Source: Actinoplanes derwentensis
GTDB taxonomy: Bacteria > Actinomycetota > Actinomycetes > Mycobacteriales > Micromonosporaceae
Assembly: GCF_900104725.1 (NCBI RefSeq)
Contig: NZ_LT629758.1
Coordinates: 7,464,001 to 7,528,000, forward strand
Length of the DNA stretch: 64,000 nucleotides
Direction of reading: 5' to 3'
Position 1 is the stretch's first letter. Each line of letters begins with the position of its first letter. Both the position numbers and the translations under genes were made by a program. The notes under the pieces are model-generated. The model saw nothing but the letters and a program-made list of their open reading frames with translations, did no database searches and was not told where the DNA came from. Shown piece after piece: positions 28,793-48,018 of the stretch.

Positions 28793-29332
28793 GTGAGAGA
28801 TCGTCGGCAAGCACGCATCGGGACCGTCAGTGGTCTCGCGCTACTGGCTGGCGCCACAGCCCTTGTCGCCGTTGCCGGTGGCCATCATTCGATCTTCGCG
28901 ACTCTGCTGCTGATTCTGCTCGCCATCGTGATGTCGCACGCTCTGGTGGTCGAGATCCAGCGTCAGGCCCGGCGCATGTCACAGACCGTCTGGTACCGCA
29001 CCGACACCGCGAACACCGTGCTCCTCGGGTGCTGGGCAATGATCGCCGCCGCCATCACCAACGTGTCGATCGTGTCGCTGCAAGTCCGAGCGCTCACCGC
29101 GGTCCTGGCCATCGGGTATGCCGCAGCCTGTGCCTACTTCGTCGTGGAACGCCGCCGGGCTGTCGCCGAACCGTTCCGGCCGTCGCCGGTGCCCCTGGCA
29201 GAGATGCCCGGAGTCGTCCTGGCAGAGATACCCGGGGTCACCTTGGCGGAGATGCCCGCTGCGGCCCCGCTGGTGGAGAGCGTGATCGAGGCGGGCCGAG
29301 AAGTGGTGCCGGACTCGGCCCCGTCGTCCTGA
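28793..29332 (+). CDS. Small membrane protein with LAEMPGV repeats
   Basis: A 179-residue protein from a GTG at 28793. Three or four hydrophobic helices occur: GLALLAGATALVAVAGG, SIFATLLLILLAIVMSHALV, TVLLGCWAMIAAAITNVSIV and ALTAVLAIGYAAACAYFVV. A short cytoplasmic tail follows with three near-repeats, PLAEMPGV, VLAEIPGV and TLAEMPAA. No family recognised. It is a lone gene between divergent and convergent neighbours. Confidence 0.6.
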   Translation: MRDRRQARIGTVSGLALLAGATALVAVAGGHHSIFATLLLILLAIVMSHALVVEIQRQARRMSQTVWYRTDTANTVLLGCWAMIAAAITNVSIVSLQVRALTAVLAIGYAAACAYFVVERRRAVAEPFRPSPVPLAEMPGVVLAEIPGVTLAEMPAAAPLVESVIEAGREVVPDSAPSS

Positions 29333-29346
29333 TCACCGGCTCCGAA

Positions 29347-29432
29347 CCACCAGGGTTTACCACCGGCTTCTGACGACCCTGCTTCGGGCCACCAGGGTTT
29401 ACCCACCCGCCTTCTGACGACCCTGCTTCGGG
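29347..29432. repeat. Tandem 42-bp duplication at the end of the Nudix gene
   Basis: CCACCAGGGTTTAC and the following CTTCTGACGACCCTGC block occur twice, starting at 29347 and 29389. The stop codon of the Nudix gene lies at the junction, so the duplicated unit extends its C-terminal coding repeat into non-coding sequence. Confidence 0.65.
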
Positions 29433-30148
29433 CCACCTGGAACCTGACCGGCCCGGCCCTGACCAGCCCGGGTCTGTCGAGGCAGAGCGGAATCGGGCCG
29501 AGCCTGACGTGGTAGAACCGAATCGGCCCGAGTCTGTCGAGGCAAAGCCGAATCGGGCCGAGTCTGACGGGACGGAACCGGATCCGGCCGCCGTCGACCA
29601 GGATGCCCCTCGCCAGGAAGCGCCGGTCCAGGCCGTCGCTGACCGGGCGCTGCCTGATCGGGTAGCGCCCGACCGGGTGCTAGCTGACCGGACGGCAACT
29701 GACCGGACGGCGACTGGGTGGGTGGTGACTGGTTCGGTTGGCCCTGGGCTGGCAGGGTCGGCAGGACCACCATCAACGGCGGCACCGCCACGCCGCTCGT
29801 CTCGATCGGCAGCTCGGGGACCGGCAACCAGTCGATGCCGAGTTGCTCCGGACCGAAGCCGTCATCACGCCCGAGCCGCGGCTCCCCGTCGGCGACGGTG
29901 ACCGTGAACACCGACGTCATGCCGGACGGGTAGGGCATCTCCAGCACGTAGCGGGCATCGCTGACGACCAGACCGGTCTCGTCGAACACCTCACGCCGCA
30001 GAGCCTCCTCGGCCGTCTCACCGGGGCGCAGGCCGCCACCAGGAAGCGTCCACCACTCACCGCCACCGGACCGCCGGCTGCGCTCGTGCACCATCAGCAC
30101 TCGCCCGTCCCGCACGATCACGGCGGCCGCCCGTCTTCGCTCGTCCAC
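29399..30148 (-). CDS. Nudix hydrolase with repetitive C-terminal tail
   Basis: A 249-residue protein. Residues 1-130 are a Nudix domain with a good Nudix box (GGGLRPGETAEEALRREV then FDETGL: G-x5-E-x7-RE-x3-E-x-G, about residues 37-60). The fold hydrolyses nucleoside diphosphates linked to another group; substrate unknown. Residues ~130-249 are a low-complexity tail of Gln/Pro/Arg repeats (SGQLPSGQLAPG, RQTRPDSALP, RQTRADSVLP, RQARPDSALP), encoded by degenerate minisatellite DNA. The tail is far longer than the family norm and likely disordered. The start at 30148 (ATG/GTG-type) leads directly into the first strand (RRAAAVIVRDGRVLMVHE). Confidence 0.82.
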   Translation of the reverse strand: MDERRRAAAVIVRDGRVLMVHERSRRSGGGEWWTLPGGGLRPGETAEEALRREVFDETGLVVSDARYVLEMPYPSGMTSVFTVTVADGEPRLGRDDGFGPEQLGIDWLPVPELPIETSGVAVPPLMVVLPTLPAQGQPNQSPPTQSPSGQLPSGQLAPGRALPDQAAPGQRRPGPALPGEGHPGRRRPDPVPSRQTRPDSALPRQTRADSVLPRQARPDSALPRQTRAGQGRAGQVPGGPKQGRQKAGG

Positions 30149-30910: not shown

Positions 30911-31050
30911 CAGCCCAGTAGATCAAAAATCGCCCCCCGGGGCCGCCCCCGGCACGATCAGAACCACGGCCACCCTGATCGAAGCCTCGACAGCCAGCCT
31001 GCAGCCACACAAACAACGCCGCCCGGTGATCCGGACGGCGTTGTTGGAGG

Positions 31051-31074
31051 TGGAGCCCAGGGGACTTGAACCCC
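31051..31074. repeat. Left attachment site of the AICE (displaced tRNA-Ala 3' end)
   Basis: Identical over 24 bases (25 with the preceding G) to the 3' end of tRNA-Ala at 47470-47493, covering the acceptor 3' strand, T arm and part of the T loop. No tRNA can be folded here, so this is the chromosomal 3' fragment left after integration. Confidence 0.9.
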
Positions 31075-31689
31075 AAATCCAAGATCATGAATTGACGTAC
31101 GACCAAATCACCCCCTGAGCTGGCGTTCCTTTAGATCATCTTCTAACTTCTGACACTGCTTTACAGGCTCACATGGTCCCGATGTGGTCCGGTTGATCTT
31201 GCGGGGCGGCCAGCCTTGGGTCGAGCAGGCGACCGCACCACGTGCCATCAGGACCACCTTTTCCGGTGGCAAGCCGCGAAGCGGCGCGGCAGCGATCGCC
31301 GGAACCGCAGCCTCCGGTGACCCACGGGAGTGATCGTCACGGCCGCAACCAATACGGAGGCGCCCGAACTGTGCATTACGAGACCAAACGAGATCGTTGA
31401 TCTAGCTGCGCGAACGTCCGCTGAGCTGCGAAAACGCTTGTCAAGATCTGACAGCGTTCCGCTGCCTCTGCGGACTTCGTGCGGACTGAATGCGGACTAC
31501 TCGATCTTGAGGCACGACATCCTGACGCGCTCACCGGCGGCAGCAGCGGTCGGCAACCATCCACACCACCGCGACCACCATATTCGGTGGCAAGCCGCGA
31601 AGCGGCGCGGCAGTGATTGCAGGGTTTGATGCGTTCACCGCATTGATGACCTTGGTAACTTGTTGATTACTTTCGGTACGGTAGTGCGC
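31075..31689. other. Left arm of the AICE, non-coding, with repeats
   Basis: About 615 bases without a gene. It contains TGGTCCCGATGTGGTCC followed by GATCTTG (31174-31202), similar to the sequence behind the integrase gene (47408-47436), and CCAAGATC at 31079-31086, the complement of GATCTTGG on the int side. A 29-bp block is repeated exactly at 31266-31294 and 31585-31613 and contains the hairpin GCCGC-GAA-GCGGC. These may be integrase arm sites and a mobile hairpin repeat; the promoter of the STAND gene should be near its right end. Confidence 0.55.
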
Positions 31690-34600
31690 ATGCTGGCGGG
31701 CGGCTGGGCGCGGATGCGGCGGTATGGATTGTGGTCCGGTGCGCCGGCGGTGGTGGCTGGTGCGGCGGGGTGGGCTGCGCTGGCGGATAACAAGCAAGGG
31801 TGGACGGTAGTGGCTGCCGCGGTGGCAGGGGCGGTGGGCGCGTTCTGCCCCACGGTGGCGGATCGGGTTGCGGCGCGGCGGGAGCGACGGCTGGCGGCGG
31901 CTGCCCGGAAGGCCGATGTCGTGGTGAAACCGGTGTCGGTGACGTGGTTGTTGCGTCCGGACCAGCGAGTGGTCCCGTTCTTTGGCCGCGGCTGGCTGCT
32001 GGCGGAATTGCAGACGTGGGCCACCGATCAGGGTGTGGATGTGGCGGCGGTGCGGCTGCTGACGGGCGCGGGCGGTGTGGGTAAGACCCGGCTGGCTCAG
32101 GAACTGGAGCAACGGCTTGCCGGGTGGCGGTGTGAGTGGATCAGCCCGCACGAAGAGGAGCAGACTGCTCGCCTGGTCGCTGCGGGAGAGTTCCCGCTAC
32201 GGTCGTTGCTGGTCATCGATTATGCCGAGGCGCGGGACCGGGCGGGGCTGGCGCAGTTGTTGTGCGCTGTGCAGACCGCGGATCGGGTGCGGATCGTGTT
32301 GCTGGCCCGGACCGCGGGGCTGTGGTGGGAGACGTTGTCGATGGCGTTCTCGCAGCAGGCTGCCTTGGTGGACTCGCTGACCAGTGCCAACGATGTGGTG
32401 GTGCATGTCGCGGCACGAGTTGACGACGTGCATGATCCGGCGACGATCGTGGCCGAGGCGGTCACGGCGTTCGCGTCGCGGCTGGGTCGTCCGGTGCCTG
32501 AGCTGGCCGGAGCACCAGGGTGGCCGGCGGATACGCCGGTGCTGCGGTTGCATGCCGATGCGTTGGTGACGGTGTTGGAGGGTGCGCATCGGCAGGGCCG
32601 CTATGACGTGCTGGTCGAGGTTCTTAAGCATGAGTCGCGGTACTGGATGCACACCGCCAGGCGGTCGCGGCTTCTTGGTGAGGTCGATGATCCAGCGAAT
32701 GCGGTGTTGCTGGAGCAGGTAGCCGGGATCGCTGCGCTGCTCGGTGCGGAGTCTGCCGCTGAGGTGGAGCAGGTCGTGCGGCGGGTGCCGCTGCTGGCAG
32801 GCGCTGAGGATGACCGGCTGGCGCGGTTCGGGTCGTGGCTGGCTGGGCTGTATCCCCGGGGCGAGGCAGGGTTGGGGGTGGTGCAGCCGGACTTGTTGGC
32901 GGAGACGCTGGCCGCGCGGGTGATAGATAGGTGTGGGCCTGTCGACCGGGCGCGGGTCTTTGCAGATCTGACTGTGGCGCAGGCGGTGCGGGCGTTGACG
33001 GTGCTCGGCCGCGCTCGGATTCATTACGCTGGCGCGGATGCGTTGATCGACGCGGCGCTCGGGGTGGACGTGGCGTGTATGGCGGAGGCCGTCGTCCACG
33101 TGGGTGTGCAGTTTCCGGGGGTGTTTACGTCCCGGATGGTGGATCGGCTGGCGTCTGCAGAGGTCGATCATCGGTGGGCGTGTGAGGTAGCCGGGCGGGT
33201 GCCGTATCCGTCGCTGGAGCTGCGTTGGCTTGCCTTGGAGTTGACGTCACGGATTGTGGCAGGTTTTCCTGCTGACGCTCCGAAAACCGATCGGGCCCAC
33301 TGGGCGACTTGGCATGCCCTCCGGCTGGCGGAGGTCGGGCGCCGGGCAGAAGCACTCACCGCCATCCAGGAAGCCGTCGACCTGCGCCGGGAACTGACCG
33401 CCCTCAACCGCGACGCCTACCTACCCGACCTGGCCATGTCGGTGAACAACCTGGCCGCCGATCTGGCGGAGGCCGGACGCCGGGCAGAAGCACTCACCGC
33501 CAGCCAGGAAGCCGTCGACCTGCGCCGGGAACTGACCGCCCTCAACCGCGACGCCTACCTACCCGACCTGGCCATGTCGGTGAACAACCACGCCGTCCAG
33601 CTGGCGGACGCCGGGCGCCGGGCAGAAGCACTCACCGCCATCCAGGAAGCCGTCGACCTCTACCGGGAACTGACCGCCCTCAACCGCGACGCCTACCTAC
33701 CCAACCTGGCCACGTCGGTGAACAACCACGCCCTCCGGCTGGCGGACGCCGGACGCCGGGCAGAAGCACTCACCGCCAGCCAGGAAGCCGTCGACCTGCG
33801 CCGGGAACTGACCGCCCTCAACCGCGACGCCTACCTACCCGACCTGGCCATGTCGGTGAACAACCACGCCCTCCGGCTGGCGGAGGCCGGACGCCGGGCA
33901 GAAGCACTCACCGCCAGCCAGGAAGCCGTCGACCTGCGCCGGGAACTGACCGCCCTCAACCGCGACGCCTACCTACCCGACCTGGCCATGTCGGTGAACA
34001 ACCACGCCCTCCGGCTGGCGGACGCCGGACGCCGGGCAGAAGCACTCACCGCCAGCCAGGAAGCCGTCGACCTCTACCGGAAACTGACCGCCCTCAACCG
34101 CGACGCCTACCTACCCAACCTGGCCACGTCGGTGAACAACCACGCCCTCCGGCTGGCGGACGCCGGACGCCGGGCAGAAGCACTCACCGCCAGCCAGGAA
34201 GCCGTCGACCTGCGCCGGGAACTGACCGCCCTCAACCGCGACGCCTACCTACCCGACCTGGCCATGTCGGTGAACAACCACGCCCTCCGGCTGGCGGAGG
34301 CCGGACGCCGGGCAGAAGCACTCACCGCCATCCAGGAAGCCGTCGACCTCTACCGGAAACTGACCGCCCTCAACCGCGACGCCTACCTACCCAACCTGGC
34401 CACGTCGGTGAACAACCACGCCCTCCGGCTGGCGGACGCCGGACGCCGGGCAGAAGCACTCACCGCCAGCCAGGAAGCCGTCGACCTGCGCCGGGAACTG
34501 ACCGCCCTCAACCGCGACGTCTACCTACCCAACCTGGCCGCCTCCCTGTGGAACGTGGGTTTCGTGGCTCTTGAAGTCGACAGCGTCACCTCTGAGGTCA

Positions 34601-34746
34601 TCGCACTGACAGCAGAAGGCGTCGGATACTTCGAAACCCTCGCCGCCGCGGAACCTGAAGCGTTCGCTGAGCGCCACCAAGCGGCAGTTGAGACCCTCAC
34701 TCGACTGCAGCATGCCCTGGACGCAAACGAACCGACGAACACCTGA
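31690..34746 (+). CDS. Membrane-anchored STAND NTPase with nine TPR repeats (NLR-like)
   Basis: A 1018-residue protein. Residues ~14-58 form two hydrophobic helices (LWSGAPAVVAGAAGWAALA; GWTVVAAAVAGAVGAF). A P-loop follows: Walker A GAGGVGKT at 126-133 and Walker B SLLVIDYAE with Asp177. A ~350-residue winged-helix-like helical region leads to nine 46-residue TPR units from about residue 546 to 959 (consensus LADAGRRAEALTASQEAVDL, then RELTALNRDAYLPDLAMSVN). The architecture is sensor repeats plus STAND ATPase plus membrane anchor, as in NB-ARC/TPR and bacterial NLR-type defence proteins. It is the first gene inside attL. No effector domain other than the helices is seen. The ATG at 31690 is chosen; a GTG at 31684 and a TTG at 31660 are in frame. 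Confidence 0.85.
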   Translation: MLAGGWARMRRYGLWSGAPAVVAGAAGWAALADNKQGWTVVAAAVAGAVGAFCPTVADRVAARRERRLAAAARKADVVVKPVSVTWLLRPDQRVVPFFGRGWLLAELQTWATDQGVDVAAVRLLTGAGGVGKTRLAQELEQRLAGWRCEWISPHEEEQTARLVAAGEFPLRSLLVIDYAEARDRAGLAQLLCAVQTADRVRIVLLARTAGLWWETLSMAFSQQAALVDSLTSANDVVVHVAARVDDVHDPATIVAEAVTAFASRLGRPVPELAGAPGWPADTPVLRLHADALVTVLEGAHRQGRYDVLVEVLKHESRYWMHTARRSRLLGEVDDPANAVLLEQVAGIAALLGAESAAEVEQVVRRVPLLAGAEDDRLARFGSWLAGLYPRGEAGLGVVQPDLLAETLAARVIDRCGPVDRARVFADLTVAQAVRALTVLGRARIHYAGADALIDAALGVDVACMAEAVVHVGVQFPGVFTSRMVDRLASAEVDHRWACEVAGRVPYPSLELRWLALELTSRIVAGFPADAPKTDRAHWATWHALRLAEVGRRAEALTAIQEAVDLRRELTALNRDAYLPDLAMSVNNLAADLAEAGRRAEALTASQEAVDLRRELTALNRDAYLPDLAMSVNNHAVQLADAGRRAEALTAIQEAVDLYRELTALNRDAYLPNLATSVNNHALRLADAGRRAEALTASQEAVDLRRELTALNRDAYLPDLAMSVNNHALRLAEAGRRAEALTASQEAVDLRRELTALNRDAYLPDLAMSVNNHALRLADAGRRAEALTASQEAVDLYRKLTALNRDAYLPNLATSVNNHALRLADAGRRAEALTASQEAVDLRRELTALNRDAYLPDLAMSVNNHALRLAEAGRRAEALTAIQEAVDLYRKLTALNRDAYLPNLATSVNNHALRLADAGRRAEALTASQEAVDLRRELTALNRDVYLPNLAASLWNVGFVALEVDSVTSEVIALTAEGVGYFETLAAAEPEAFAERHQAAVETLTRLQHALDANEPTNT
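33325..34566 (+). repeat. Nine tandem 138-bp repeats coding TPR units
   Basis: The phrase GCACTCACC recurs at 33352, 33490, 33628, 33766, 33904, 34042, 34180, 34318 and 34456, exactly 138 bases apart. Units are nearly identical at the DNA level and fall into two variants: one coding LRRE...LPDLAMS, the other LYR(E/K)...LPNLATS. The last unit decays at its end. Such identity implies recent duplication or ongoing gene conversion. Confidence 0.95.
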
Positions 34747-34813
34747 ACTGGGTGTCCCGACGCCGCGGGATCAAGTCGCCACGACGAAGGATGGCCGGCG
34801 CGCTGGCCGATGC

Positions 34814-34869
34814 CGGGCGTAGCCCGCCAGCAGGCCGAGCGCGTCCGGCCACGCCGCGCTTGCGCGGCG
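34814..34869 (+). terminator. Two hairpins downstream of the STAND gene
   Basis: CGGGC-GTA-GCCCG (34814-34826) and CGCCGCGC-TT-GCGCGGCG (34852-34869, perfect 8-bp stem) follow the STAND stop codon by 70-125 bases. No U-tract is present, but tandem GC-rich hairpins often end transcripts in actinomycetes. Confidence 0.5.
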
Positions 34870-34996
34870 CCTTGATACAGAACAGGCAAATTCAGCAGTA
34901 CAACGTCAGCGAGCCGTGTCGTGTCCCGGCTGATGCTTGACAGTCGCGTCCCACCAGATGCTTGACATGATCACCATCCGGGCGAGTTCATGGCGC

Positions 34997-35841: not shown

Positions 35842-37275
35842 ATGTTTGAGATTTGCGTAGCTATCACCTTCTTCACAGTAGTTCCTTTTACGGTCACATC
35901 TCTGGCATATTCCTCAGCTATTAAGATTCAAAGGCGCGCGGGTAGATTCTCGCCGAGAACACCGGCATTGGTTCGAAAATTTCAATTAGCCAATCCCGCG
36001 CGACTTTGGATTCACCAATCATCCGGATATCTGATGCCACGCAGCGGAAGGAGCGGCCCAACGATCACCATCTTGCGCAAGAATTTCAAGCTGCGATTTC
36101 CTTATGATGCCGTACGGTGGGTATACGAAGCGACTCCAACCCCATCAGCCGATTTGGTCTATGAGAATTTCGGAAGACTGGCAATTCCTAGCCTCACAGG
36201 ATTTGCCTATGGCGCGGGTACGCTTAGCGCTCCAATACCGGTGCTATACATAATAAATAACATTGTCACCGATCAGAAAACATCCTTAACCGGCCTGGCT
36301 GGGATTTTGATTCCAACAGTAATATCGGGCGGCCTGATAGGGATGACCTTCCTTCTGGCCATATCGTCCACCATCCTGCGACTACCTAGCATCTATAGCC
36401 TTCGTCGCATAGCTAAATACGGTAGACTCTTGCCGCCAGACAGCGTCATAACCGTTGCCGCACGACTAGCGACGATCGAGTTCCTATTTATCTTTATCCT
36501 CCTAGGCGGATTTTCTCCACTTCTTTATCTTTCGATTCTGGATCCGCTTTCAAAATTTAGCGGACTATACGGAGCTCGGCTCCATGAATACGATGCCAGA
36601 CTAGTTTGGCTATCGCTAGCAACACTAGTTGCAGTTTCATGTTCCATAGCTCGCTGGAACATCCATCGCCGTAGCGGCGCACCCTTGGCGCTCAAGGCAA
36701 CACTCATATATTTGCACCTGACAGAGGGAAATACGACCGAGGAGGCGGGGTTCTGGGGGCCAACCGCAGATCCCATCGGCAAGAACCGAGCCGCGCTTAC
36801 CCAGTTAGCTGATCGCCTAGAAGTCTACGCCAACTGGCTACCGCAGATCTCAGCACGCGAAGTTGTCAGTAATCCCATGGCGCTGGTGACACGCGGGGCA
36901 ACACGATCAATACGCACTTTCGTGCGTGGACGAACCTCATTGGAGATAGGCAGCAGTAGAGAAATCGATCAAGTTCTCCAAGAGCTTGCTGTCACCTTCT
37001 CAGGCCCACGAGATATAACGTTGGTCGGAAGACTCGCTGACCGACTTGAGGTATTCAATGAGGACGGAACACCCTCTGAAGAGCTTGCCACACCTGCTCC
37101 AGGGAGATTCGCTAAGGCTTTACAGAAGTCGTCGGCGAGACTGGAGGCGACTGAACGAAGAGTGCAGTCCTTTTCGAATCTTCTACCAATTGCCGTAATT
37201 GGAGGTGTAGTAATTCTCGCCATACGTGGCGACTGGGCAAAGATTGCAGACCTATTTGTTGGCTTACTAGGTTAG
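35842..37275 (+). CDS. AT-rich orphan integral membrane protein (AICE cargo)
   Basis: A 477-residue protein of no family I recognise. Hydrophobic helices are visible at about residues 3-24 (CVAITFFTVVPFTVTSLAY), 115-135, 145-175 (AGILIPTVISGGLIGMTFLL), 205-235 (IEFLFIFILLGGFSPLLYLS), 255-273 (LVWLSLATLVAVSCSIARW) and near the C-terminus (LLPIAVIGGVVILAIRGDW). A ~150-residue soluble loop lies before the last helix, with a short amphipathic stretch (ARLEATERRVQSFSN). Codon use is clearly less GC-rich at third positions than all other genes in the window, a sign of recent acquisition from a lower-GC donor. Ribosome binding site AAGGG is good, and the frame is intact. A role in phage or plasmid exclusion is possible but only by location. 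Confidence 0.75.
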   Translation: MFEICVAITFFTVVPFTVTSLAYSSAIKIQRRAGRFSPRTPALVRKFQLANPARLWIHQSSGYLMPRSGRSGPTITILRKNFKLRFPYDAVRWVYEATPTPSADLVYENFGRLAIPSLTGFAYGAGTLSAPIPVLYIINNIVTDQKTSLTGLAGILIPTVISGGLIGMTFLLAISSTILRLPSIYSLRRIAKYGRLLPPDSVITVAARLATIEFLFIFILLGGFSPLLYLSILDPLSKFSGLYGARLHEYDARLVWLSLATLVAVSCSIARWNIHRRSGAPLALKATLIYLHLTEGNTTEEAGFWGPTADPIGKNRAALTQLADRLEVYANWLPQISAREVVSNPMALVTRGATRSIRTFVRGRTSLEIGSSREIDQVLQELAVTFSGPRDITLVGRLADRLEVFNEDGTPSEELATPAPGRFAKALQKSSARLEATERRVQSFSNLLPIAVIGGVVILAIRGDWAKIADLFVGLLG

Positions 37276-37343: not shown

Positions 37344-38168
37344 TCAGACGCGCGCAGCGTCAGCGATCAGAATCCATGCATCGAGGCGTTCAGAGGTGGT
37401 TTGGACATGCTCGACAACCTGATCACGCAGACCGGAAATTTCATATCCAGCTTGAATTCTTATCATGATCACTGCTGCGTCATATGCATGTTCGCCTGTT
37501 ACGCCACGAGGGTCGATGTACGCCCAGCCACGAGGCCCATCGGCGATTATATTTCCGCTGGATGCGTCACCGTGGCAAAGCGCCGGCGTATGGTCCAAGG
37601 AAAGATCCTCCAGGAGTGCGAGTGCAGTTCGTCGCTCACTGGCGGGGGCGATGGTAGTCCCGGGGCGAAGGTCAGTGAGTTGGTCGTCTTCGAGACGGTC
37701 GCGGAGCCAGTCAAAGATTGAGGACATACCAGGTCGGGGTGGTGGCTGGTCCCGAATTGCCGCCAGCGGTGCGAAGAGCGCTTGCAGATCGACGGTAGCC
37801 GGATCCACCTGGTTGAAGGGCGTTCCGGGAAAGACTCGGTCCATCACGGTCCAAGTCCCATGATCGGCAGCTACGGCTTCGTGGACTCGTGGGGCAGCAC
37901 CAAGGTTGGCAAGTGCAGCGGCGACAGCGGCTTGGTCGGCTCCGTGTGGGTCGGGGCTGCTGCGGAACACGAGTGGGCCGTCTGGGGTGTCGATGGCTGT
38001 GACGAATCCGTAGCGGGCGGGCAGGACCTCGCGTGGGGTGGCCTGGTAACGCTCACAGAGGGCCTGGAACTCGGCTCCGACGTGTGTGGCCCAGGGATCG
38101 GCGATGTCGGGCCAGCGGCGGCGGATGTTGGCCAGTACCGCGGCTGGCACTGCGAATTGGTCGGTCAT
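37344..38168 (-). CDS. Aminoglycoside phosphotransferase-family protein
   Basis: A 274-residue APH/choline-kinase fold protein. The catalytic loop LCHGDASSGNIIADGPRGWA (H-G-D-x4-N, about residues 197-216) and the metal-binding YIDPRGVTGEHAYDAA (Asp of DPRG) are present; the N-terminal lobe (TPDGPLVFRSSPDPHGADQA) lacks a clear conserved Lys, so activity on a small molecule is likely but unproven. It is the last gene of a three-gene operon; its start overlaps the HAD gene by four bases. True aminoglycoside resistance should not be assumed, since many such proteins phosphorylate sugars or metabolites. Confidence 0.8.
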   Translation of the reverse strand: MTDQFAVPAAVLANIRRRWPDIADPWATHVGAEFQALCERYQATPREVLPARYGFVTAIDTPDGPLVFRSSPDPHGADQAAVAAALANLGAAPRVHEAVAADHGTWTVMDRVFPGTPFNQVDPATVDLQALFAPLAAIRDQPPPRPGMSSIFDWLRDRLEDDQLTDLRPGTTIAPASERRTALALLEDLSLDHTPALCHGDASSGNIIADGPRGWAYIDPRGVTGEHAYDAAVIMIRIQAGYEISGLRDQVVEHVQTTSERLDAWILIADAARV

Positions 38169-38869
38169 CGTGCTGGGTTGGCAGCGGTGTGGAGCGCGTT
38201 GGCTAGGTCGTGCATGGAATCGATCACGACGTCGGCTCCGGCATCAGTGAGGCGCTGGTGTTTGCCGGGCTTGTTGGCGTACCCGATGGTGGGGATGCCA
38301 GCGGCTCGGCCTGCCTCGATGTCGGTTACCGAGTCGCCGATGAAGGCCGTGCCGTTTCGGGCTGCTCCGGTGGCGGTGAGGCCCCGTTCCAGAAGGAACG
38401 GGTGGGGCTTGAGTAGGCGGGGGTCCATGCCGTCGAACCGCGCGGTGATCCCCTCGGCGTAGCGGATCAGATCGTGGTTCTGAAGGTATGCGCTGATGGC
38501 GTCGGTGGCGTTGTTGCTGACAATGGCGACTTGGCGGCCTGAAGCATGGGCGGCCTGAAGCACCTCTGCGGCGCCTGGTGTCGGTACGGCTGACTCGACC
38601 GCGGCGACCTCGGCGTCTCGGCAGGCTTGGGTGACTTCGTGGGTGAGGTGTTGGTCTTGGAGGCGGGCGACTGCGGTGAGGATCTGGAGTGGGTCCGCCG
38701 TCAGCTCGGCGATGGCCGACGGCAGTTCACCTGCGAAGTACCGGCGAATGACGGTGCGCAGTTCGTCGGCGACGGCTGCGGCCGGACGCCCGGCGAAGAC
38801 GACGCAGATCGGGCCGTCGAAGTCGATCAGCAGGCACGATGACTCGTCGATCAGGTCGGCGAGGTTCAT
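38165..38869 (-). CDS. HAD superfamily hydrolase
   Basis: A 234-residue HAD phosphatase. Motif I is LLIDFDGPICVVF (DFDGP, residues 16-20, with nucleophile Asp16), motif II is VAIVSNNAT, the conserved Lys is in RLLKPHPFLLERGL, and motif III/IV is FIGDSVTDIEAGRAAGIPTIGYA. The C1 cap is the alpha-helical type of phosphoglycolate phosphatase-like enzymes. DFDGP replaces the commoner DxDGT. It overlaps both neighbours by four bases, so it is made with the GntR regulator and the APH-like kinase; kinase plus phosphatase under a GntR regulator suggests handling of one metabolite (inference). Confidence 0.85.
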   Translation of the reverse strand: MNLADLIDESSCLLIDFDGPICVVFAGRPAAAVADELRTVIRRYFAGELPSAIAELTADPLQILTAVARLQDQHLTHEVTQACRDAEVAAVESAVPTPGAAEVLQAAHASGRQVAIVSNNATDAISAYLQNHDLIRYAEGITARFDGMDPRLLKPHPFLLERGLTATGAARNGTAFIGDSVTDIEAGRAAGIPTIGYANKPGKHQRLTDAGADVVIDSMHDLANALHTAANPAR

Positions 38870-39732
38870 GGGGTGTACTCGTGGGCGATGGTGTCCCAGA
38901 CGCTGTCGAACCAGGCGCGGGACTGCTGGACGAACTGGTCTCCGGCGTCGCCGTCGTCACCGCTGAGGGCGTAGTGGAACAGCGGGACATCCTTGCCCAG
39001 CACGTCGAAGATCGGTACGGCTTGCTTGTCGACAGAAACGGTGTTGCGGACGACGGGGTAGAAGCCGAAGAAGACCTCGTCGCGGTTGAGGATGTAGAGC
39101 TTCGACAGGACCGTGGTTCCGTACGCGCGGATCTCGGTCGTGGCGTTGCGGACCAAGCCCAGGGTGGCCAGCTCCCCCACTGACTCGATGATCGCCTCGG
39201 TGTGGCGGCGTGCGATCCGGGCAGCCCGTTCACGGACGGCAGGATCGTCCCCGGCCGGTTCCACGCGGGAGGGAATCACCGCGGGCTGTGTCAGGTCCGG
39301 TAGCAGGATGCGGATGGCGATCGACTCGGGTGTCAGGCGTCCGGCGCGGATCTTGTCCAAGGGTTCTTGGATGGCGGTGTGGAGGGTTTCGCTGGAGAAA
39401 CCGGCGAAGTCGATGGTGATGTGGGGCTGCTCGAACGCGGCCTCGATGTGTGGGCGCAACCCGACCGGGCGATCGGTTTGGGCGCGGACGAAGGCGCCGC
39501 TGCCTTGGCGGCTGATGATGAGGCGGTCGTCGCGCAGGATGCGTAGGGCGGACTTGATGGTCTCGCGGGCTACGCCGTAGCGCTCGGCCAAGTCGTTCTG
39601 TGACGGCAGGCGTTCGCCGGGGGCGAAGCGGCGCGTCAGGATCGCTGCGCGCAGCACGTTGGCGATCTGCTGCGAAGCGGGACGGGCGTCGTCCGGCTCC
39701 AGGTCGTCGAGGTCGCGGGCTTCCACGTTCAC
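38866..39732 (-). CDS. GntR-family transcriptional regulator
   Basis: A 288-residue regulator from a GTG at 39732. The winged helix reads ASQQIANVLRAAILTRRFAPGERLPSQNDLA, then YGVARETIKSALRILRDDRL, then IISRQGSGAFV, a standard GntR DNA-binding domain at about residues 18-85. The ~200-residue C-terminal region is not the usual UTRA and includes RDEVFFGFYPVVRNTVSVDK. It heads the HAD/APH operon. Its promoter carries the palindromes CCTGGCTAGCCAGG and TGACTAGC-3-GCTAGTCA, which share TGGCTAGCCA-type symmetry with the promoter behind the second GntR gene. Confidence 0.85.
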   Translation of the reverse strand: MNVEARDLDDLEPDDARPASQQIANVLRAAILTRRFAPGERLPSQNDLAERYGVARETIKSALRILRDDRLIISRQGSGAFVRAQTDRPVGLRPHIEAAFEQPHITIDFAGFSSETLHTAIQEPLDKIRAGRLTPESIAIRILLPDLTQPAVIPSRVEPAGDDPAVRERAARIARRHTEAIIESVGELATLGLVRNATTEIRAYGTTVLSKLYILNRDEVFFGFYPVVRNTVSVDKQAVPIFDVLGKDVPLFHYALSGDDGDAGDQFVQQSRAWFDSVWDTIAHEYTP

Positions 39733-41818: not shown

Positions 41819-41912
41819 TTCTCATTCGCGTCCGGGAGCGGGGCCAACAACCGCCAAGAAGTTCTCCCCGCCCCGGCCGCTCCAACCGCCACCTGTGAAG
41901 GAGTGGGCTGTG

Positions 41913-42233: not shown

Positions 42234-42235
42234 CC

Positions 42236-43666
42236 ATGCCGCTGATCAACATCATCCGGGGCGAGACCATCCCGATCGCCCCGCTCAACGTCCGTACCCC
42301 GGTCTTCAAGCTGCCGATCTGGGCGGTCGTCGTCTGGGAGACCATCAAAGCCCTGGCCTGGCTGGTCACCACCTACGCCCGGCACTGGTACGTGACACTG
42401 CCGGTCACCGGACTGGCCTGGCTCTACCTCGCGCACGGCTGGCAGTGGCTCGCCGGGCTGGTCGGCGGTGTGGCTGTCACGGCTACCGGGTGGGCGTTCG
42501 CGCATCGGCCGTCGTGGCTGCGGTTCGGCTGGTGGCCGGTCCTCGCCCGCATCCGGCGCCTGGTGTACCGGCGGCGGTGGATGGCCGCGATGGTCACCGC
42601 GAAACTGTCGATCGCCTACGACAAACGCACGATCATCCCGCAGATCCGCCGGGTACGCTGCCGCGCGGGCTGTGACGAAGTGCTGGTGCGGATGGTGACC
42701 GGCCAAATCCCCGACGACTTCGCCAAGGCCTCCGAACGGCTGGCGCACACGTTCGGGGTCCGGCAGGTCAAGGCCATGCCCGGCCCGACGTACGCAACCG
42801 TGGTCCTGGTCCTCATGCGCGGCGACACCCTCCACGACACCATCGGCCCGCTGCCGGTACCGGACCGGCCGGACTTCACCGCTCTACCCATCGGCGTCCA
42901 GGAAGACGGCGAAACCTACCGGCTGCGGCTGTTCGGCACGCAGGTCCTGATCGTCGGAGCGACCGGATCGGGCAAAGGTTCGGTGATCTGGTCCATCGTC
43001 CGGGCACTGTCCGGCGGGGTCGCGAAAGGCCTGGTCGAACTGTGGGGCCTCGACCCCAAAGGCGGCATGGAACTGGGGATCGGACGGCCGTTGTTCACCC
43101 GGTTCGCATCGAAGGACTTCGCCGAGATGGCAGCCATGATCGAGCAGGCCGCGGCCGTGGCCCAGCAACGCGCCGCCCGCCTGGCCGGACACACCCGCCA
43201 GCACCAGCCCACCCCGGACGAACCGTTGATCGTCCTGGTCATCGACGAACTGGCGAACCTGACCGCCTACCTCACCGAACGCCAACTCAAGGACCGGATC
43301 AAGGCTGCGCTCGGCATCGTGCTGACCCAAGGCCGCGCCGTCGGCGTCCACGTGGTCGCAGCGATTCAGGACCCGCGTAAGGAGGTGCTGCCCGCGCGAG
43401 GGCTGTTCCCGACCCGGATCGGGCTGCGGCTATCGGAACCGGCGGAGGTCGACATGGTCCTCGGCGACGGGATGCGCGACCGCGGAGCCCTCTGCGACCG
43501 CATCCCCCAGACCCAGCCCGGCATCGGCTACGTGACCTTGGAAGGCGACCCCACCCCGATGCGGGTCCGGTTGACCTACTGCGACGACGACACCGTGCGG
43601 GACATGGCCCATGAATACGGGCGCCTGCGCGTGGTCGACGGCGAAGCCGCGGGAGGTGCGGCGTGA
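42236..43666 (+). CDS. FtsK/SpoIIIE-type DNA translocase (TraSA-like)
   Basis: A 476-residue transfer ATPase. Two hydrophobic helices at about 28-48 and 55-88 are followed by a cytosolic ATPase with Walker A GATGSGKGS (241-249), WGLDPKGGMELGIGRPLF, and Walker B LIVLVIDELANLTAYL. The C-terminal part (GVHVVAAIQDPRKEVLPARG, LFPTRIGLRLSEPAEVDMVL) fits FtsK-domain translocases of conjugative elements. In AICEs this single hexameric pump moves double-stranded DNA between mycelia. Its stop overlaps the GTG of the next gene. Confidence 0.9.
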   Translation: MPLINIIRGETIPIAPLNVRTPVFKLPIWAVVVWETIKALAWLVTTYARHWYVTLPVTGLAWLYLAHGWQWLAGLVGGVAVTATGWAFAHRPSWLRFGWWPVLARIRRLVYRRRWMAAMVTAKLSIAYDKRTIIPQIRRVRCRAGCDEVLVRMVTGQIPDDFAKASERLAHTFGVRQVKAMPGPTYATVVLVLMRGDTLHDTIGPLPVPDRPDFTALPIGVQEDGETYRLRLFGTQVLIVGATGSGKGSVIWSIVRALSGGVAKGLVELWGLDPKGGMELGIGRPLFTRFASKDFAEMAAMIEQAAAVAQQRAARLAGHTRQHQPTPDEPLIVLVIDELANLTAYLTERQLKDRIKAALGIVLTQGRAVGVHVVAAIQDPRKEVLPARGLFPTRIGLRLSEPAEVDMVLGDGMRDRGALCDRIPQTQPGIGYVTLEGDPTPMRVRLTYCDDDTVRDMAHEYGRLRVVDGEAAGGAA

Positions 43667-44172
43667 AGCTGAGCACCGACCGGATCGAGGGCCTGACCCT
43701 CGCCGCCATCCTCACCACCGTCGCCGTGGCTGCCGGATGGGCCTCGTTCACCCACGTCCACGACTGGACCATGCGCCACGCCCCCACCGGCACCCCGGAC
43801 GCGTTCGGCTGGGTCAACGCGGTCATCTCCGAACTCGTCCCGGTCGCGGCGCTGCTCACCATCAAACGGCGACGCCGGGCCGGTGCCCCGATCGGCTACC
43901 CACTGTTCCTGCTCATCGCCGCCGGCACGCTGTCATTGTCGGCACAGCTCGCCGTCGCCCAGCCCAGCCCTTCCGGGTGGCTGCTGTCGGCGGTGCCCGC
44001 GCTGGCGTTCATGGCCCTGGTCAAGCTCGTCTTCACCAGCACCCCGGCCCCGGAGCAACAGGCACCGGTCGACGATACCGAGGACACGCCTACTCCGGCC
44101 GTGCCGACAGCGCCGGTCCGGCCGCTGCCCCGGACCAACGGGGTGCCGGTCATCGGGCAGGTGACCCGATGA
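43663..44172 (+). CDS. DUF2637 membrane protein (SpdB-like)
   Basis: A 169-residue protein with four hydrophobic helices: LTLAAILTTVAVAAGWASF, WVNAVISELVPVAALLTI, YPLFLLIAAGTLSLSAQLAV and LLSAVPALAFMALVKLVF. An acidic/proline tail follows. This matches DUF2637/SpdB proteins of actinomycete plasmids, which help spread DNA through the recipient mycelium. The GTG at 43663 overlaps the translocase stop, and its own stop overlaps RepSA. Confidence 0.85.
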   Translation: MKLSTDRIEGLTLAAILTTVAVAAGWASFTHVHDWTMRHAPTGTPDAFGWVNAVISELVPVAALLTIKRRRRAGAPIGYPLFLLIAAGTLSLSAQLAVAQPSPSGWLLSAVPALAFMALVKLVFTSTPAPEQQAPVDDTEDTPTPAVPTAPVRPLPRTNGVPVIGQVTR

Positions 44173-45947
44173 CTACTGCACCTCTGGCGGCCCCGCCTCG
44201 GCCGGGCTCCCGCGCGGCCCGCCTCGCCAACCCTCGGGCCGTCGACGCGCTCAAAGACCTCGCCATCGACCACGGCGTCTGCATCCGACCGATCGCTCTC
44301 CGGCGGACCGACCTGGCCACCGGCAAGACCGAACTCGTCGACCTGCCCTGCGGCGCCACCCTCGAAGCCAAATGCCCGCCCTGCGCCAAACGAGCACGAC
44401 GACTGCGGCAGGTCCAGATCCGCGAAGGCTGGCACCGCACCGACGAACCCCAACCCGGCCCGGCACCAGCCACACCCCGCCAGCGGGACCTGATCACCGC
44501 ACGGGCACACCTGGAATTCGAACGAGCCGCACTCCAACTCACCGCGATGGACCCCAGCGACCGGGCGGCCGAACTGGAGCGCATCGACACGGCCATCGAC
44601 GCGGTAGAGCAAGAGATCGCCGCCGAAGGCCTGCGCGGCAGCATCGCCCCGGGTCACTCCCGCACCGACGACCCGGACAGCGACGATGGACCGCGGCGGG
44701 TCCGGTCGACCAAACGGCGTCAGGACGTGCCCGACCTGCCCCGGCAGAAGATCGAGGCGCGCACGGTAGGCCGAACCTACGTGGGCTCGGATGGTGTCGA
44801 GCATCGGCCGTCGATGTGGCTGACCCTCACCCTGGACAGCTACGGCCCGGTCCACTCCATCCACGCCGGACGGCCGTGCTCCTGCCGCCGCTGGCACACC
44901 CAGGAAGACCCCCAACTCGGCACCCCGGTCGACCCAGCCCGGTACGACTACCGACGGGCCGCCTGGGACGCCGTCCACTTCCCTCGGCTCCTCGACCGCT
45001 ACTGGCAGAACCTGCGCCGGGCCGTGGGCTGGAACGTCCAATACGCGGGCTGTGTCGAGCCCCAACGGCGTCTCGCCCCGCACGCCCACTTCGCCATCCG
45101 GGGCACCATCCCCCGCACCATGCTGGAGCTGGTCGCCAAGGCCACCTACCACCAGGTGTGGTGGCCGCCGGCCGACCGACTCCGCTACCCCATCGACCGA
45201 CCACCCACCTGGGACACCAAAGGCGAGACCTGGGTCGACCCGGACACCGGACGGCCCCTGTCCACGTGGGATGAGGCCCTGGACGACCTCGACGACGACC
45301 CGGACGCCGAACCAGCACACCTCGTCCGCTTCGGCGCCCAAGTCAAGGCCAAGGGCGTCGACCCCGGCACCCGCGACGCGGAACGGACCATCGGCTACAT
45401 CACCAAGTACGTGACCAAGTCCGCGGCCGACTGCCACACCACCACCAGCGACCCGCAACGCCAGCACCTCGACCGCCTCTGGCACGAACTCCGCGTCACC
45501 CCCTGCTCAGACCGGTGCTCGAACTGGCTGCTCTACGGCGTCCAGCCCAAGAAGGCCCACGGACGGCTCCGGCCCGGCCACTGCAAGGGACGCGTGCACC
45601 AGAAAGTGACCCTCGGCATCGGCGGACGCCGGGTTCTGGTCTCCCGCGACTGGTCCGGCAAGACCCTCGCCGACCACCGCGCCGACGCCCACGCCTGGGT
45701 CAAGGCCCTGCTCGGCGTCACCACGGAGGAACCGGAACCCGACGCTACGGAAAAGCCGGCGGTCGCCTGGGAGATGGCCCGACACGACGACCCCGACCTC
45801 CCGGCCCTCGAACACCGGCTCTTGCGGGCCATCTCCGAGCGCATCCACCGCCGCGGGCAGTTGAACGCAGCGCGACAGCGGGCCAGCGGCGATCCGCCGG
45901 GCGATGTCTCGGCAACTGCAACCAACGACACGGGGGAGACACGATGA
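44169..45947 (+). CDS. repSA: Replication initiator protein, RepSA family
   Basis: A 592-residue initiator. Two cysteine clusters (CGATLEAKCPPCAKRARRL near residues 58-76 and SCRRWHTQEDPQ near 240) are followed by the HUH-type core: VEPQRRLAPHAHFAIRGTIP (H-x-H near residue 305) and, later, RTIGYITKYVTKSAADCH carrying the likely nicking tyrosine. It closes with CSDRCSNWLLYGVQPKKAHG. RepSA-type proteins nick the element origin for rolling-circle copying after excision. ATG overlaps the SpdB stop; its stop overlaps xis. Confidence 0.88.
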   Translation: MTTAPLAAPPRPGSRAARLANPRAVDALKDLAIDHGVCIRPIALRRTDLATGKTELVDLPCGATLEAKCPPCAKRARRLRQVQIREGWHRTDEPQPGPAPATPRQRDLITARAHLEFERAALQLTAMDPSDRAAELERIDTAIDAVEQEIAAEGLRGSIAPGHSRTDDPDSDDGPRRVRSTKRRQDVPDLPRQKIEARTVGRTYVGSDGVEHRPSMWLTLTLDSYGPVHSIHAGRPCSCRRWHTQEDPQLGTPVDPARYDYRRAAWDAVHFPRLLDRYWQNLRRAVGWNVQYAGCVEPQRRLAPHAHFAIRGTIPRTMLELVAKATYHQVWWPPADRLRYPIDRPPTWDTKGETWVDPDTGRPLSTWDEALDDLDDDPDAEPAHLVRFGAQVKAKGVDPGTRDAERTIGYITKYVTKSAADCHTTTSDPQRQHLDRLWHELRVTPCSDRCSNWLLYGVQPKKAHGRLRPGHCKGRVHQKVTLGIGGRRVLVSRDWSGKTLADHRADAHAWVKALLGVTTEEPEPDATEKPAVAWEMARHDDPDLPALEHRLLRAISERIHRRGQLNAARQRASGDPPGDVSATATNDTGETR

Positions 45948-46165
45948 GCAGGCACCTGACGGTGGTACCGAGCCCAGACAGCACACCTGACGGTCCGGAC
46001 GAGCTGTGGTCCATCAACGATGCCGCCGCGTACCTGCGTATCCCTCCGGGCACGCTCTACCAGTGGCGCCACCGCCGGAAGGGTCCGCCGGCCTTCAAGG
46101 TCGGCAAGCACCTCCGCTACGACCCGGCCGCGGTCCGTGCCTGGGTGCTGGGGCAGGTGGCCTGA
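45944..46165 (+). CDS. xis: Excisionase (Xis), MerR-like helix-turn-helix
   Basis: A 73-residue protein: LWSINDAAAYLRIPPGTLYQ then WRHRRKGPPAFKVGKHLRYD is the helix-turn-helix_17/MerR-like excisionase domain. It overlaps the RepSA gene by four bases (ATGA) and is one base from the integrase GTG, the standard xis-int arrangement of pSAM2-type elements. Xis directs the integrase to excise rather than insert. Confidence 0.9.
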   Translation: MSRHLTVVPSPDSTPDGPDELWSINDAAAYLRIPPGTLYQWRHRRKGPPAFKVGKHLRYDPAAVRAWVLGQVA

Positions 46166-46166
46166 C

Positions 46167-47405
46167 GTGGGCGTACACGATCTTTGGTATCTGTCCAAGA
46201 AGGACGAAAACAAAAAGAAGGTCAAATCGGGCAAGTACGGGCGCGGCAAACGCTGGCGTGTCCGCTACACCGACGCCACCGGCGAGACCAAGGACAAGGT
46301 CTTCGAGCGTAAGACCGACGCTGAAGCCTTCGATGCGGCTTGCCGGGCTGGCACTGCACCGGAGACCGACCTGGACCAGGGCGAGAAGTACATCAAGTTC
46401 GCCGCCTACGCCGAACGCTGGCGTCAGGCCAGGGTCATCGGCTGGGCTCTGGAGACTCAGACCCGGATCGAGTCGAACCTCCGGTTGCACCTCGTCCCGG
46501 CGTTCGGCAACCGCGCTCTCCGCTCGATCACTCAGACAGATGTGCTGTTGTGGCTGGCGGGACGACTCGGTGACGGGATGGCGCCGTCCAGCTTGCGCCT
46601 GTACTTCGAGCTGTTCGACGCGGTGATGTCCGGCGCTGTCACGGACAAGATCGTCCCGGATAACCCGTGCGACGGGATCAAGCTGTCCCAGGTGTTCCGT
46701 GGGTTGAGCCGCGCCCCGAAGTGGGTTCCCGAGCGGGAGGACGTGCTCCGCCTGTTCGGCAAAGTGCCCGAGCGGTATCACGGCCTGCTCTGGCTCGGGG
46801 CCGGCGCCGGTCTTCGCATCAGTGAAGCGCTCGGCTTCGAGCTGGGGCCGCGCTGCCTGAACGTCGGCAACGAGGAGCTGCACGTGGTCCAGCAGCTCCG
46901 CTACGCGCCCAGGGAGTACGGCGGGTTCTATCTCAGCCTGCCCAAGGGCGTGCGGACGTTCGATCCGGCCGCGGGGGCTGTGGACCTGGACCCGATGGTC
47001 GCGGCGGCCCTGGCGTACCACGTGAAGGAGTTCCCGCCGGTCGAGGTCGAGATGCCGGACATCACCTCGGGGCCTACGGTCCGGCGCCGGGTGCCGCTGC
47101 TGTTCACGACAGTCCACGGCAATCCGTTCACGGACCGTACGTGGTCGGCGGAGTGGGTGAAGTGGCGCCGGGCAGCGGGCTGGCCGGAGGAACACGGCGG
47201 CTTTCACGCACTGCGGCATTTCTTCGCGACGACGTTGATCACGAATCACGCGGACCCGAAGGACGTTCAGCGGGCGCTACGACACTCCACGCTGTCGATC
47301 ACGCTCGAGACCTACGTGCACTTCTGGCCGCGCCGTGAACGGCGCCGGGGGATCGTCGGCGAGACCCTGAAAGAAGCGGTCGCGGGCCGGTGGGACCTGG
47401 ACTGA
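46167..47405 (+). CDS. int: Tyrosine recombinase integrase
   Basis: A 412-residue integrase from GTG 46167. Three regions are visible: an arm-binding N-terminus (KYGRGKRWRVRYTDATGETK), a core-binding SAM-like domain (FAAYAERWRQARVIGWALET, about residues 78-165), and a catalytic domain. The catalytic residues are present: Arg217 (AGAGLRISEALG), His347 and Arg350 (FHALRHFFAT), His373 (LRHSTLSITL) and the nucleophile Tyr383 (ETYVHFWP). It ends 64 bases from the tRNA-Ala 3' end into which the element is inserted. Confidence 0.95.
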   Translation: MGVHDLWYLSKKDENKKKVKSGKYGRGKRWRVRYTDATGETKDKVFERKTDAEAFDAACRAGTAPETDLDQGEKYIKFAAYAERWRQARVIGWALETQTRIESNLRLHLVPAFGNRALRSITQTDVLLWLAGRLGDGMAPSSLRLYFELFDAVMSGAVTDKIVPDNPCDGIKLSQVFRGLSRAPKWVPEREDVLRLFGKVPERYHGLLWLGAGAGLRISEALGFELGPRCLNVGNEELHVVQQLRYAPREYGGFYLSLPKGVRTFDPAAGAVDLDPMVAAALAYHVKEFPPVEVEMPDITSGPTVRRRVPLLFTTVHGNPFTDRTWSAEWVKWRRAAGWPEEHGGFHALRHFFATTLITNHADPKDVQRALRHSTLSITLETYVHFWPRRERRRGIVGETLKEAVAGRWDLD

Positions 47406-47445
47406 GGTGGTCCCGAAGTGGTCCCAACGATCTTGGAGTTATAAA

Positions 47446-47463
47446 AAGCCTGTTCACAGGCTT
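47446..47463 (+). terminator. Hairpin after the integrase gene
   Basis: AAGCCTG-TTCA-CAGGCTT is a perfect 7-bp stem with flanking AAAA on the 5' side and TT on the 3' side, 40 bases after the integrase stop and next to tRNA-Ala. It could end both the int transcript and the tRNA transcript coming from the right. Confidence 0.65.
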
Positions 47464-47469
47464 AGAGAG

Positions 47470-47493
47470 TGGAGCCCAGGGGACTTGAACCCC
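47470..47493. repeat. Right attachment site of the AICE
   Basis: This 24-bp segment is the 3' end of the intact tRNA-Ala and is identical to 31051-31074. It marks the int-proximal end of the element. Confidence 0.9.
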
Positions 47494-47542: not shown

Positions 47543-47552
47543 GTGACCTGCG

Positions 47553-47943: not shown

Positions 47944-48018
47944 TCACCTGCGGACAGAACTTTACCGCATCGGGTTGCGGGCTCCAAAACGGGGTCCCGC
48001 AACCCGATCAAGTAAACG

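What the first reader, a model, noticed from the sequence alone, without database searches (positions are those of the whole stretch)
31690..34746. NLR-like membrane STAND ATPase with nine near-identical TPR units as AICE cargo: candidate defence system
Seen: two N-terminal membrane helices, Walker A GAGGVGKT, Walker B with Asp177, then nine 46-residue TPR units encoded by 138-bp repeats that differ at few bases and alternate between two variants. Known: bacterial STAND/NLR-type proteins with repeat sensors act in anti-phage defence, and defence genes often sit at ends of integrative elements. Inferred: this protein senses an invader through the TPR array and acts at the membrane via its N-terminal helices; no other effector is visible. 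The near-identical repeats suggest rapid copy-number change, which could alter specificity.
Basis: partly seen in the sequence, partly recalled or inferred. Interest (0 to 1): 0.85.

Follow-up and report, generated by a model that had tools for sequence, protein, structure and literature searches.

The report
Mobile membrane immune-receptor-like STAND/TPR protein
A mobile element in a soil actinobacterium carries a single gene for a receptor built like our own innate-immunity NLR proteins, whose sensing part is a row of nearly identical repeats that are gained, lost and rewritten quickly between species, so it is probably a fast-evolving recognition protein, though nobody has yet tested what it recognises.

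Summary
ORF 31690-34746 (1018 aa) has an N-terminal two-helix hydrophobic hairpin, a STAND-type P-loop ATPase and nine 46-aa TPRs from nine 138-bp units, which do not strictly alternate. It lies in a 16.4-kb AICE in tRNA-Ala (att copies 31050-31074 and 47469-47493; four relatives hold one att copy). A sister element (backbone 86% identical) has another gene in the slot 31294-34791, so this looks like exchangeable single-gene cargo. The family occurs in 21 of 354 Micromonosporaceae genomes, 17 without AICE genes in the DNA fetched. Related cores replace the hairpin by trypsin, TIR, EAD5 or GT4-conflict domains. Unit number equals its partner's in only 13 of 89 pairs with cores at least 80% alike. 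Units are homogenised inside the array (4-fold divergence 0.04 against 0.40 between orthologous cores); variable residues lean to one face of TPR helix A. Best reading: a STAND conflict receptor with a membrane-acting or membrane-anchoring hairpin and a fast-turnover TPR sensor, a new variant of a known kind. Anti-phage function is inferred; no known defence model matches the protein and nothing was tested biologically.

The parts
31050..31074 (+). left att copy of the element (25 bp identical to the 3' end of tRNA-Ala)
   Evidence: exact 25-bp match to 47469-47493; the same 25 bp occurs once, at tRNA-Ala, in the stretches fetched from four relatives
31245..31293 (+). double-hairpin motif, copy 1; last conserved bases before the cargo slot
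   Evidence: homology to the sister element L149 ends here
31566..31613 (+). double-hairpin motif, copy 2, just upstream of the STAND gene
31690..34746 (+). STAND-TPR gene, 1018 aa (alternative start TTG 31660)
31693..31920 (+). N-terminal hydrophobic helical hairpin (residues 2-77), effector or anchor position
   Evidence: AlphaFold2 helices 2-32 and 37-77 at low pLDDT; hydropathy and conserved turn in relatives; other domains in this place in more distant relatives
31975..33312 (+). STAND ATPase core and helical arm, residues about 96-541 (Walker A 126-133, Walker B D177, sensor-1-like R207, the last label recalled)
   Evidence: Pfam AAA_16 below cut-off; invariant columns; core model pLDDT 91.4, top Foldseek hit EfAvs5, NLRC4 second among VIA rows
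33313..34554 (+). nine 138-bp units encoding nine 46-aa TPRs
   Evidence: TPR_10 and TPR_12; helix pairs in model
34555..34743 (+). C-terminal helical cap conserved in the family
   Evidence: helices 968-987 and 989-1013; family consensus
34792..34901 (+). 110-bp block shared with the sister element, far edge of the cargo slot
   Evidence: 89% identity to L149:3062-3172
42236..43666 (+). AICE transfer gene, FtsK/SpoIIIE family
43611..45947 (+). AICE replication initiator RepSA
   Evidence: PF20199, E 2.7e-94
46020..47405 (+). AICE tyrosine integrase
   Evidence: PF00589; 92% identical copy beside the same tRNA in G040
47469..47493 (+). right att copy at the 3' end of tRNA-Ala(tgc)

Best explanation
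It is a stand-alone STAND-type conflict receptor, an NLR-like protein related to the nSTAND_NTPase5 lineage. Shown: hairpin, ATPase core, helical arm, nine TPRs and cap in one protein; a place in a mobile element from which a sister element differs; sensor arrays that change unit number and are homogenised between species; variable residues concentrated on one face of TPR helix A. Inferred: at rest the ATPase is closed and held by the arm and the TPR array. An invader's (or non-self) polypeptide lies along the concave TPR surface, where the invariant Asn46 of each unit could grip its backbone and variable residues 3, 39, 42 and 45 read side chains. Binding releases the ATPase, ADP is exchanged for ATP, protomers oligomerise and the N-terminal hairpins cluster in the cytoplasmic membrane, leaking or disabling it so that the cell or hyphal compartment stops growing and the invader cannot spread. 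Unequal recombination between near-identical units supplies new unit numbers and combinations, hence new specificities.
Against: No match of the protein to any PADLOC defence model. No phage or element ligand identified; no biology tested. Hairpin modelled poorly (block pLDDT 41-66), so pore against anchor is open. Fast divergence of tandem repeats is general and strongest in actinobacteria (PMC5120217, passages read), so turnover alone does not prove immunity. Positional variability inside arrays correlates with variability between arrays (Spearman 0.78), so part of it may be plain tolerance; two of the four hottest positions (25, 39) are outside the recalled groove set. Many unit counts come from draft assemblies.
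Confidence: 0.6

Rival explanations
1. Element-serving function: the protein protects the AICE rather than the cell against phage, by sensing competing conjugative elements or incoming copies (exclusion), or acts in mycelial self/non-self recognition like fungal HET NLRs.
For: It is cargo of an AICE, in a slot at one element end. Fungal NLRs with the same array behaviour are tied to non-self recognition (PMC4986451, passages read). AICE genes lie near the family loci of 4 of 21 genomes.
Against: 17 of 21 genomes show no AICE gene in the DNA fetched around the gene (stretches of 10-40 kb, some cut by contig ends); the sister element does without the gene.
Confidence: 0.2
2. STAND regulator of metabolism or development (MalT/AfsR kind) that happens to have TPRs.
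For: MalT and PH0952 are TPR-STANDs, PH0952 with a solved structure (PMC6468293, passages read); a MalT chain appears at E 0.039 in the profile search.
Against: No DNA-binding domain found; the N-terminus is a hydrophobic hairpin, replaced by protease, TIR and GT4 domains in distant relatives. Sporadic distribution (21 of 354 genomes at E 1e-60) and no constant neighbour in a crude ORF comparison.
Confidence: 0.12
3. The near-identical array is a neutral by-product of tandem-repeat instability and gene conversion with no bearing on specificity; the protein has a fixed ligand.
For: Fast horizontal divergence of repeats is universal (PMC5120217, passages read). Intra-array dN/dS is below 1 in 10 of 12 arrays (0.38-0.86) and rests on few changes where above 1. 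Variability correlates with general tolerance.
Against: Nine of the ten other TPR places examined in the same genome have no array of 70% or more DNA identity; variable sites cluster on recalled groove positions (p 0.005) and one helix-A face (p 0.047) but not on helix B (p 0.59); all 12 intra-array dN/dS values exceed six of the seven core values.
Confidence: 0.25

Closest known systems
Predicted counter-invader STAND proteins of multicellular bacteria (nSTAND clades, EAD/effector systems; PMC7159879, PMC8195603) and Pfam PF25199 nSTAND_NTPase5
   Same: Effector-STAND-superstructure repeat order; N-terminal effector exchange among related cores; occurrence in a filamentous actinobacterium; 18 of 38 aligned members match PF25199 at E 0.1 and all 10 same-genus relatives scanned do, 5 above the gathering score
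   Different: The window protein itself does not reach PF25199; its effector position holds a two-helix hydrophobic hairpin; no EAD and no constant partner gene found
Avs/bNACHT anti-phage NLR-like proteins
   Same: STAND core; EfAvs5 is the best Foldseek hit of the core; recalled: C-terminal repeat sensor, N-terminal effector
   Different: No PADLOC match, no NACHT match above cut-off, different effector; recalled: Avs sensors read conserved phage proteins and are not near-identical arrays
Fungal NLRs with high internal repeat conservation (TPR, ANK and WD types; PMC4986451)
   Same: NOD-like ATPase with near-identical repeats, repeat-number polymorphism, suggested concerted evolution, variable residues at the predicted interaction surface
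   Different: Eukaryotic; NACHT or NB-ARC; not on conjugative elements; sequence relation not tested here
TPR-STAND PH0952 (6mfv) and MalT
   Same: STAND core plus TPR sensor; PH0952 listed by Foldseek
   Different: Transcription factors with a DNA-binding domain (PMC6468293, passages read); their repeats are divergent (recalled)
AICE pACPL of Actinoplanes sp. SE50/110 (PMC3364876)
   Same: RepSA, FtsK-type transfer gene, integrase, insertion in a tRNA 3' end
   Different: tRNA-Pro, 13.6 kb; the word tetratricopeptide does not occur in the main text

Membership tests
STAND ATPase superfamily | P-loop Walker A and hhhhD Walker B with sensor-1 arginine | tested here: met
   G129, G131, K132, D177, R207 invariant in the window protein and 37 relatives; the sensor-1 label is recalled
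STAND ATPase superfamily | fold of NBD plus helical/winged-helix arm like solved STANDs | tested here: inconclusive
Pfam PF25199 nSTAND_NTPase5 | score above gathering cut-off 34 bits | tested here: not met
   window protein not listed at E 1; 18 of 38 aligned members match at E 0.1, best 6.1e-7; 5 of 10 same-genus relatives scanned above 34 bits
NACHT (PF05729) | score above gathering cut-off 26.7 bits | tested here: not met
   12 bits, E 0.18
Known anti-phage defence systems (PADLOC 2023) | match to a defence protein model | tested here: not met
   0 models for the window protein at E 1; of the 38 aligned members no model matches more than 3, the best single hit being CARF1--CARF_HEPN at 1.2e-5 in one member
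Known anti-phage defence systems (PADLOC 2023) | protects a host against phage | not testable with these tools
   needs a bench test
   I know of no such model in the libraries held; none was listed for the protein
Effector-exchanging conflict STANDs | related core joined to alternative effectors in the same position | tested here: met
   TIR_2, EAD5, GT4-conflict, Trypsin_2 N-termini in relatives of about 30-36% core identity; trypsin matches in 6 of 10 same-genus relatives scanned
Rapid-turnover repeat sensor | repeat number differs between close relatives and units are more alike within than between arrays | tested here: met
   13 of 89 pairs equal; 4-fold divergence 0.042 within, 0.36 between units of G000 and G016, 0.40 between their cores. 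In the Micromonospora trio within-array values (0.10-0.43) do not all lie below between-array ones (0.23-0.26)
Actinomycete integrative and conjugative element | integrase, RepSA-type replication gene and FtsK-like transfer gene between att repeats in a tRNA gene | tested here: met

The most novel reading that the evidence does not exclude
A bacterial NLR whose antigen specificity is continually rebuilt by recombination among near-identical TPR units, each contributing an invariant asparagine that grips an extended foreign polypeptide and a few variable groove residues that read it, and which travels between hosts as an exchangeable single-gene cassette of an AICE: a prokaryotic counterpart of fungal HET-type repertoires.
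Probability: 0.35. Interest if true: 0.8.

Novelty: new variant of a known kind. Interest (0 to 1): 0.55.

Why it matters
If right, it offers a compact, single-gene system in a laboratory-tractable group for watching a receptor's specificity change by repeat gain and loss, a process described for fungal non-self recognition; in the listings of my searches I saw no experimental report of it for a bacterial STAND. It also adds a membrane-hairpin lineage that the PADLOC models held here do not cover.

Tried and rejected
Rejected: the variants alternate (order is A A B A A B A B A'). Rejected: the gene is typical AICE cargo (4 of 21 genomes). Rejected: a conserved partner gene; in a crude ORF comparison, gene clusters shared by three or more loci occur mainly in the syntenic trio G146/G202/G228 and among AICE genes; one four-genome cluster, c1, was not identified. 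Rejected: gross assembly artefact of the array, since the genome is one contig and the nine units have eight distinct sequences (units 4 and 7 identical), although P0002, which matches the window protein over its 560 residues, stops inside the first unit on a 23.6-kb contig. Unit counts from draft genomes are uncertain; the five pairs whose members both lie on contigs over 6.4 Mb (contig lengths, read off by eye, pairs not independent) all differ in unit number. Led nowhere: genome-contig scan with the core (no relatives); PHROGs (only weak hits in the repeats for the STAND protein); Rfam on 31000-31750 (nothing near a gathering score); a paper search with SNaCT (zero occurrences in the 8 papers listed of 1,137); a paper search for TPR hypervariable positions (none found, so that numbering is recalled). 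The whole-model VIA list is filled by TPR proteins, so absence of other folds there means nothing. Ignored as repeat artefacts: 5_3_exonuc, NleF_casp_inhib, DUF3856. Rows dropped: only P0003-P0060 with a first unit after residue 450 were used, and only pairs with a C-terminal cap counted; the position statistics used 17 arrays under 85% core identity with at least four 46-residue units, the last unit dropped where more than four; the window's own array is not among the 17. In some searches only units that the profile cut at exactly 46 residues were used (8 of 9 in the window, unit 2 left out) and, although the heading printed says so, the last unit was not excluded; redid the window with all nine units, units 1-8 and units 3-8 (dN/dS 1.59, 1.61, 1.95).

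Full report
Where it is. The window is part of a 10.65-Mb single-contig genome. The genus is almost certainly Actinoplanes: same-genus genome G016 has a contig of 9,128,557 bases, the contig length listed for the A. digitatis homologue P0003. The core has one match in the genome, and one array unit finds only the nine array positions.

The mobile element. Twenty-five bases at 31050 repeat the 3' end of tRNA-Ala at 47469. Between them lie a GntR-UTRA regulator, an FtsK-like transfer gene, RepSA and a tyrosine integrase: an AICE of 16.4 kb. In the 6-8 kb fetched from G013, G021, G031 and G047 there is a single att copy, at tRNA-Ala, and the window's left flank lies beside it, about 0.4-0.5 kb away in three and 1.4 kb in G031: sites without this element. 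In G027 two att copies 3.9 kb apart enclose another insertion with a closely related integrase end. In G040 two att copies 13.4 kb apart at the same tRNA enclose a sister element with a 92% identical integrase; the right part, window 41387-48491 (which runs 1 kb past the element), is 86% identical. On the left its homology to the window stops at 31293, resumes for 110 bp at 34792-34901, and is then absent until 41387. Between the first two points it has a 223-aa ORF with a lipoprotein-like start (my reading) instead of the STAND gene. So the STAND gene fills one exchangeable slot of a cargo region; the far edge of that slot rests on the 110-bp block.

The family. At E 1e-60 the core occurs in 21 of 354 Micromonosporaceae genomes, 9 of 44 genera. 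AICE genes appear in the fetched DNA of 4 of 21: RepSA, FtsK and Int in G000 and G048, FtsK and RepSA in G340, FtsK at a contig end in G136. The core match is split in G015 and G048, probably interrupted copies. A crude ORF comparison found no constant partner gene. More distant cores carry other N-termini: TIR_2 (P0073), EAD5 (P0079), GT4-conflict (P0084), Trypsin_2 (P0088) among the 8 proteins scanned, and a trypsin match in 6 of 10 same-genus relatives, 3 of them above Pfam's cut-off. Both sets were picked, from hits and from long N-termini, so these are not frequencies. Trypsin, TIR, GT4 and EADs are named as effector or adaptor parts of predicted counter-invader systems in PMC7159879 and PMC8195603 (passages read). 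The hairpin thus sits in the effector position. It may form a membrane lesion or merely anchor the protein.

Repeat turnover. Family arrays run from 2 (P0008) to 13 units (P0005), with 16 in G063a. Among 89 pairs with cores at least 80% identical and a C-terminal cap, 13 have equal unit numbers (the pairs are not independent and many assemblies are drafts). In the window, 4-fold degenerate sites differ by 0.042 within the array (0.038 with all nine units), by 0.36 between its units and those of G016, and by 0.40 between the two cores, so the array was homogenised long after the lineages split. Not every array is so uniform: within-array values in 15 other arrays with at least two 46-residue units run from 0.00 to 0.46. 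Intra-array dN/dS is 1.41 in the window (1.59 with all nine units, 1.61 for units 1-8; dS only 0.04) and 0.38-1.12 in eleven other arrays; cores give 0.20-0.41 in seven pairs. In 17 arrays, the window's not among them, the most variable positions are 3, 25, 39 and 42, while 5, 14 and 46 never vary. Canonical TPR groove positions (2, 5, 9, 12, 13; numbering recalled, mapped by me to 42, 45, 3, 6, 7) vary more than the rest (0.45 against 0.21, one-sided p 0.005), and variability leans to one face of helix A (p 0.047) but not of helix B (p 0.59). The invariant Asn46 recalls the asparagine ladders of LGN, kinesin light chain and OGT (recalled), which are among the structural matches of the array. 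Counter-evidence: positional variability within arrays tracks that between arrays (Spearman 0.78); positions 25 and 39 are outside the recalled groove set; and PMC5120217 reports that fast repeat divergence is universal and largest in actinobacteria (passages read).

A control inside the genome. TPR_10 matches fall in 16 places by my count (150 of 428 candidates scored). I examined ten besides the window's; one, at 2.82 Mb, has a comparable array (about seven 120-bp units, 97% alike). It lies in a protein with CHAT, AAA_16 and TPR matches, beside a VWA_CoxE gene and an AAA_5 gene that I read as MoxR-like, which resembles the MoxR-vWA conflict systems of PMC7159879, although that paper's main text does not use the word CHAT. 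Five TPR_10 places were not examined. This agrees with, but does not prove, a link between near-identical TPR arrays and conflict STANDs.

Literature. PMC4986451 (passages read) describes the same regime in fungal NLRs: highly conserved repeats, repeat-number polymorphism and positive selection at predicted interaction surfaces. PMC10907252 (passages) describes a different diversifying mechanism, retroelements acting on bacterial STAND-associated sensors. PMC6468293 (passages) gives the autoinhibition and opening mechanism for TPR-STANDs used in my model. I saw no paper on this family in the listings; that library lacks most subscription papers, and an earlier report of near-identical repeats in bacterial STAND proteins is recalled, not seen.

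Verdict. Observation confirmed with one correction; interpretation partly supported: a mobile, fast-evolving NLR-like receptor is well supported, its anti-phage role is a reasoned inference.

Noticed in passing
window 31245-31293 and 31566-31613; L149:2035-2059; L095:2118-2142; L150-L164: A double-hairpin motif (CCACC-loop-GGTGG then GCCGC-GAA-GCGGC) marks the cargo-slot edge of this AICE and lies near the left end of the G040 and G027 elements. Its 25-bp core (up to 2 mismatches) occurs in 24 of 67 same-genus genomes, reversed control 0; 7 of 15 fetched places show a RepSA, FtsK or Int match in the stretch, some Int matches only about 30% identical. Candidate cis-acting element for AICE replication, transfer or module exchange; no Rfam match near a gathering score.
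   Followed up: partly
G000:C1:2822500-2830500 (L130): An AAA_5 (MoxR-like) gene, a vWA gene and a CHAT-ATPase protein with about seven 97%-identical 40-aa TPR units: looks like a ternary conflict system.
   Followed up: partly
G000:C1:2399500-2404500 (L133): EAD2-NB-ARC-TPR protein; no array of 70% or more DNA identity found in it.
   Followed up: no
window 37344-39732 (-): Second cargo block of the AICE: aminoglycoside-phosphotransferase-like kinase, HAD hydrolase and GntR regulator in one operon-like row.
   Followed up: no
window 35842-37275 (+): 477-aa ORF inside the element without a match in Pfam, PADLOC, NCBIfam or PHROGs.
   Followed up: no
L095:1862-5786 (G027): A 3.9-kb insertion between two att copies at the same tRNA-Ala, with a right end 91% identical to the window's: probably a shrunken relative of the element.
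   Followed up: partly
L073 (G340), L038 (G048), L068 (G136): Family members near other AICE genes, in G048 and G340 with RepSA proteins that match each other but not the window's at E 1e-10: suggests repeated recruitment by AICEs. The G048 copy is split.
   Followed up: partly
window 29193-29716: Low-complexity tandem repeats (15- to 60-bp periods) in the flank left of attL.
   Followed up: no
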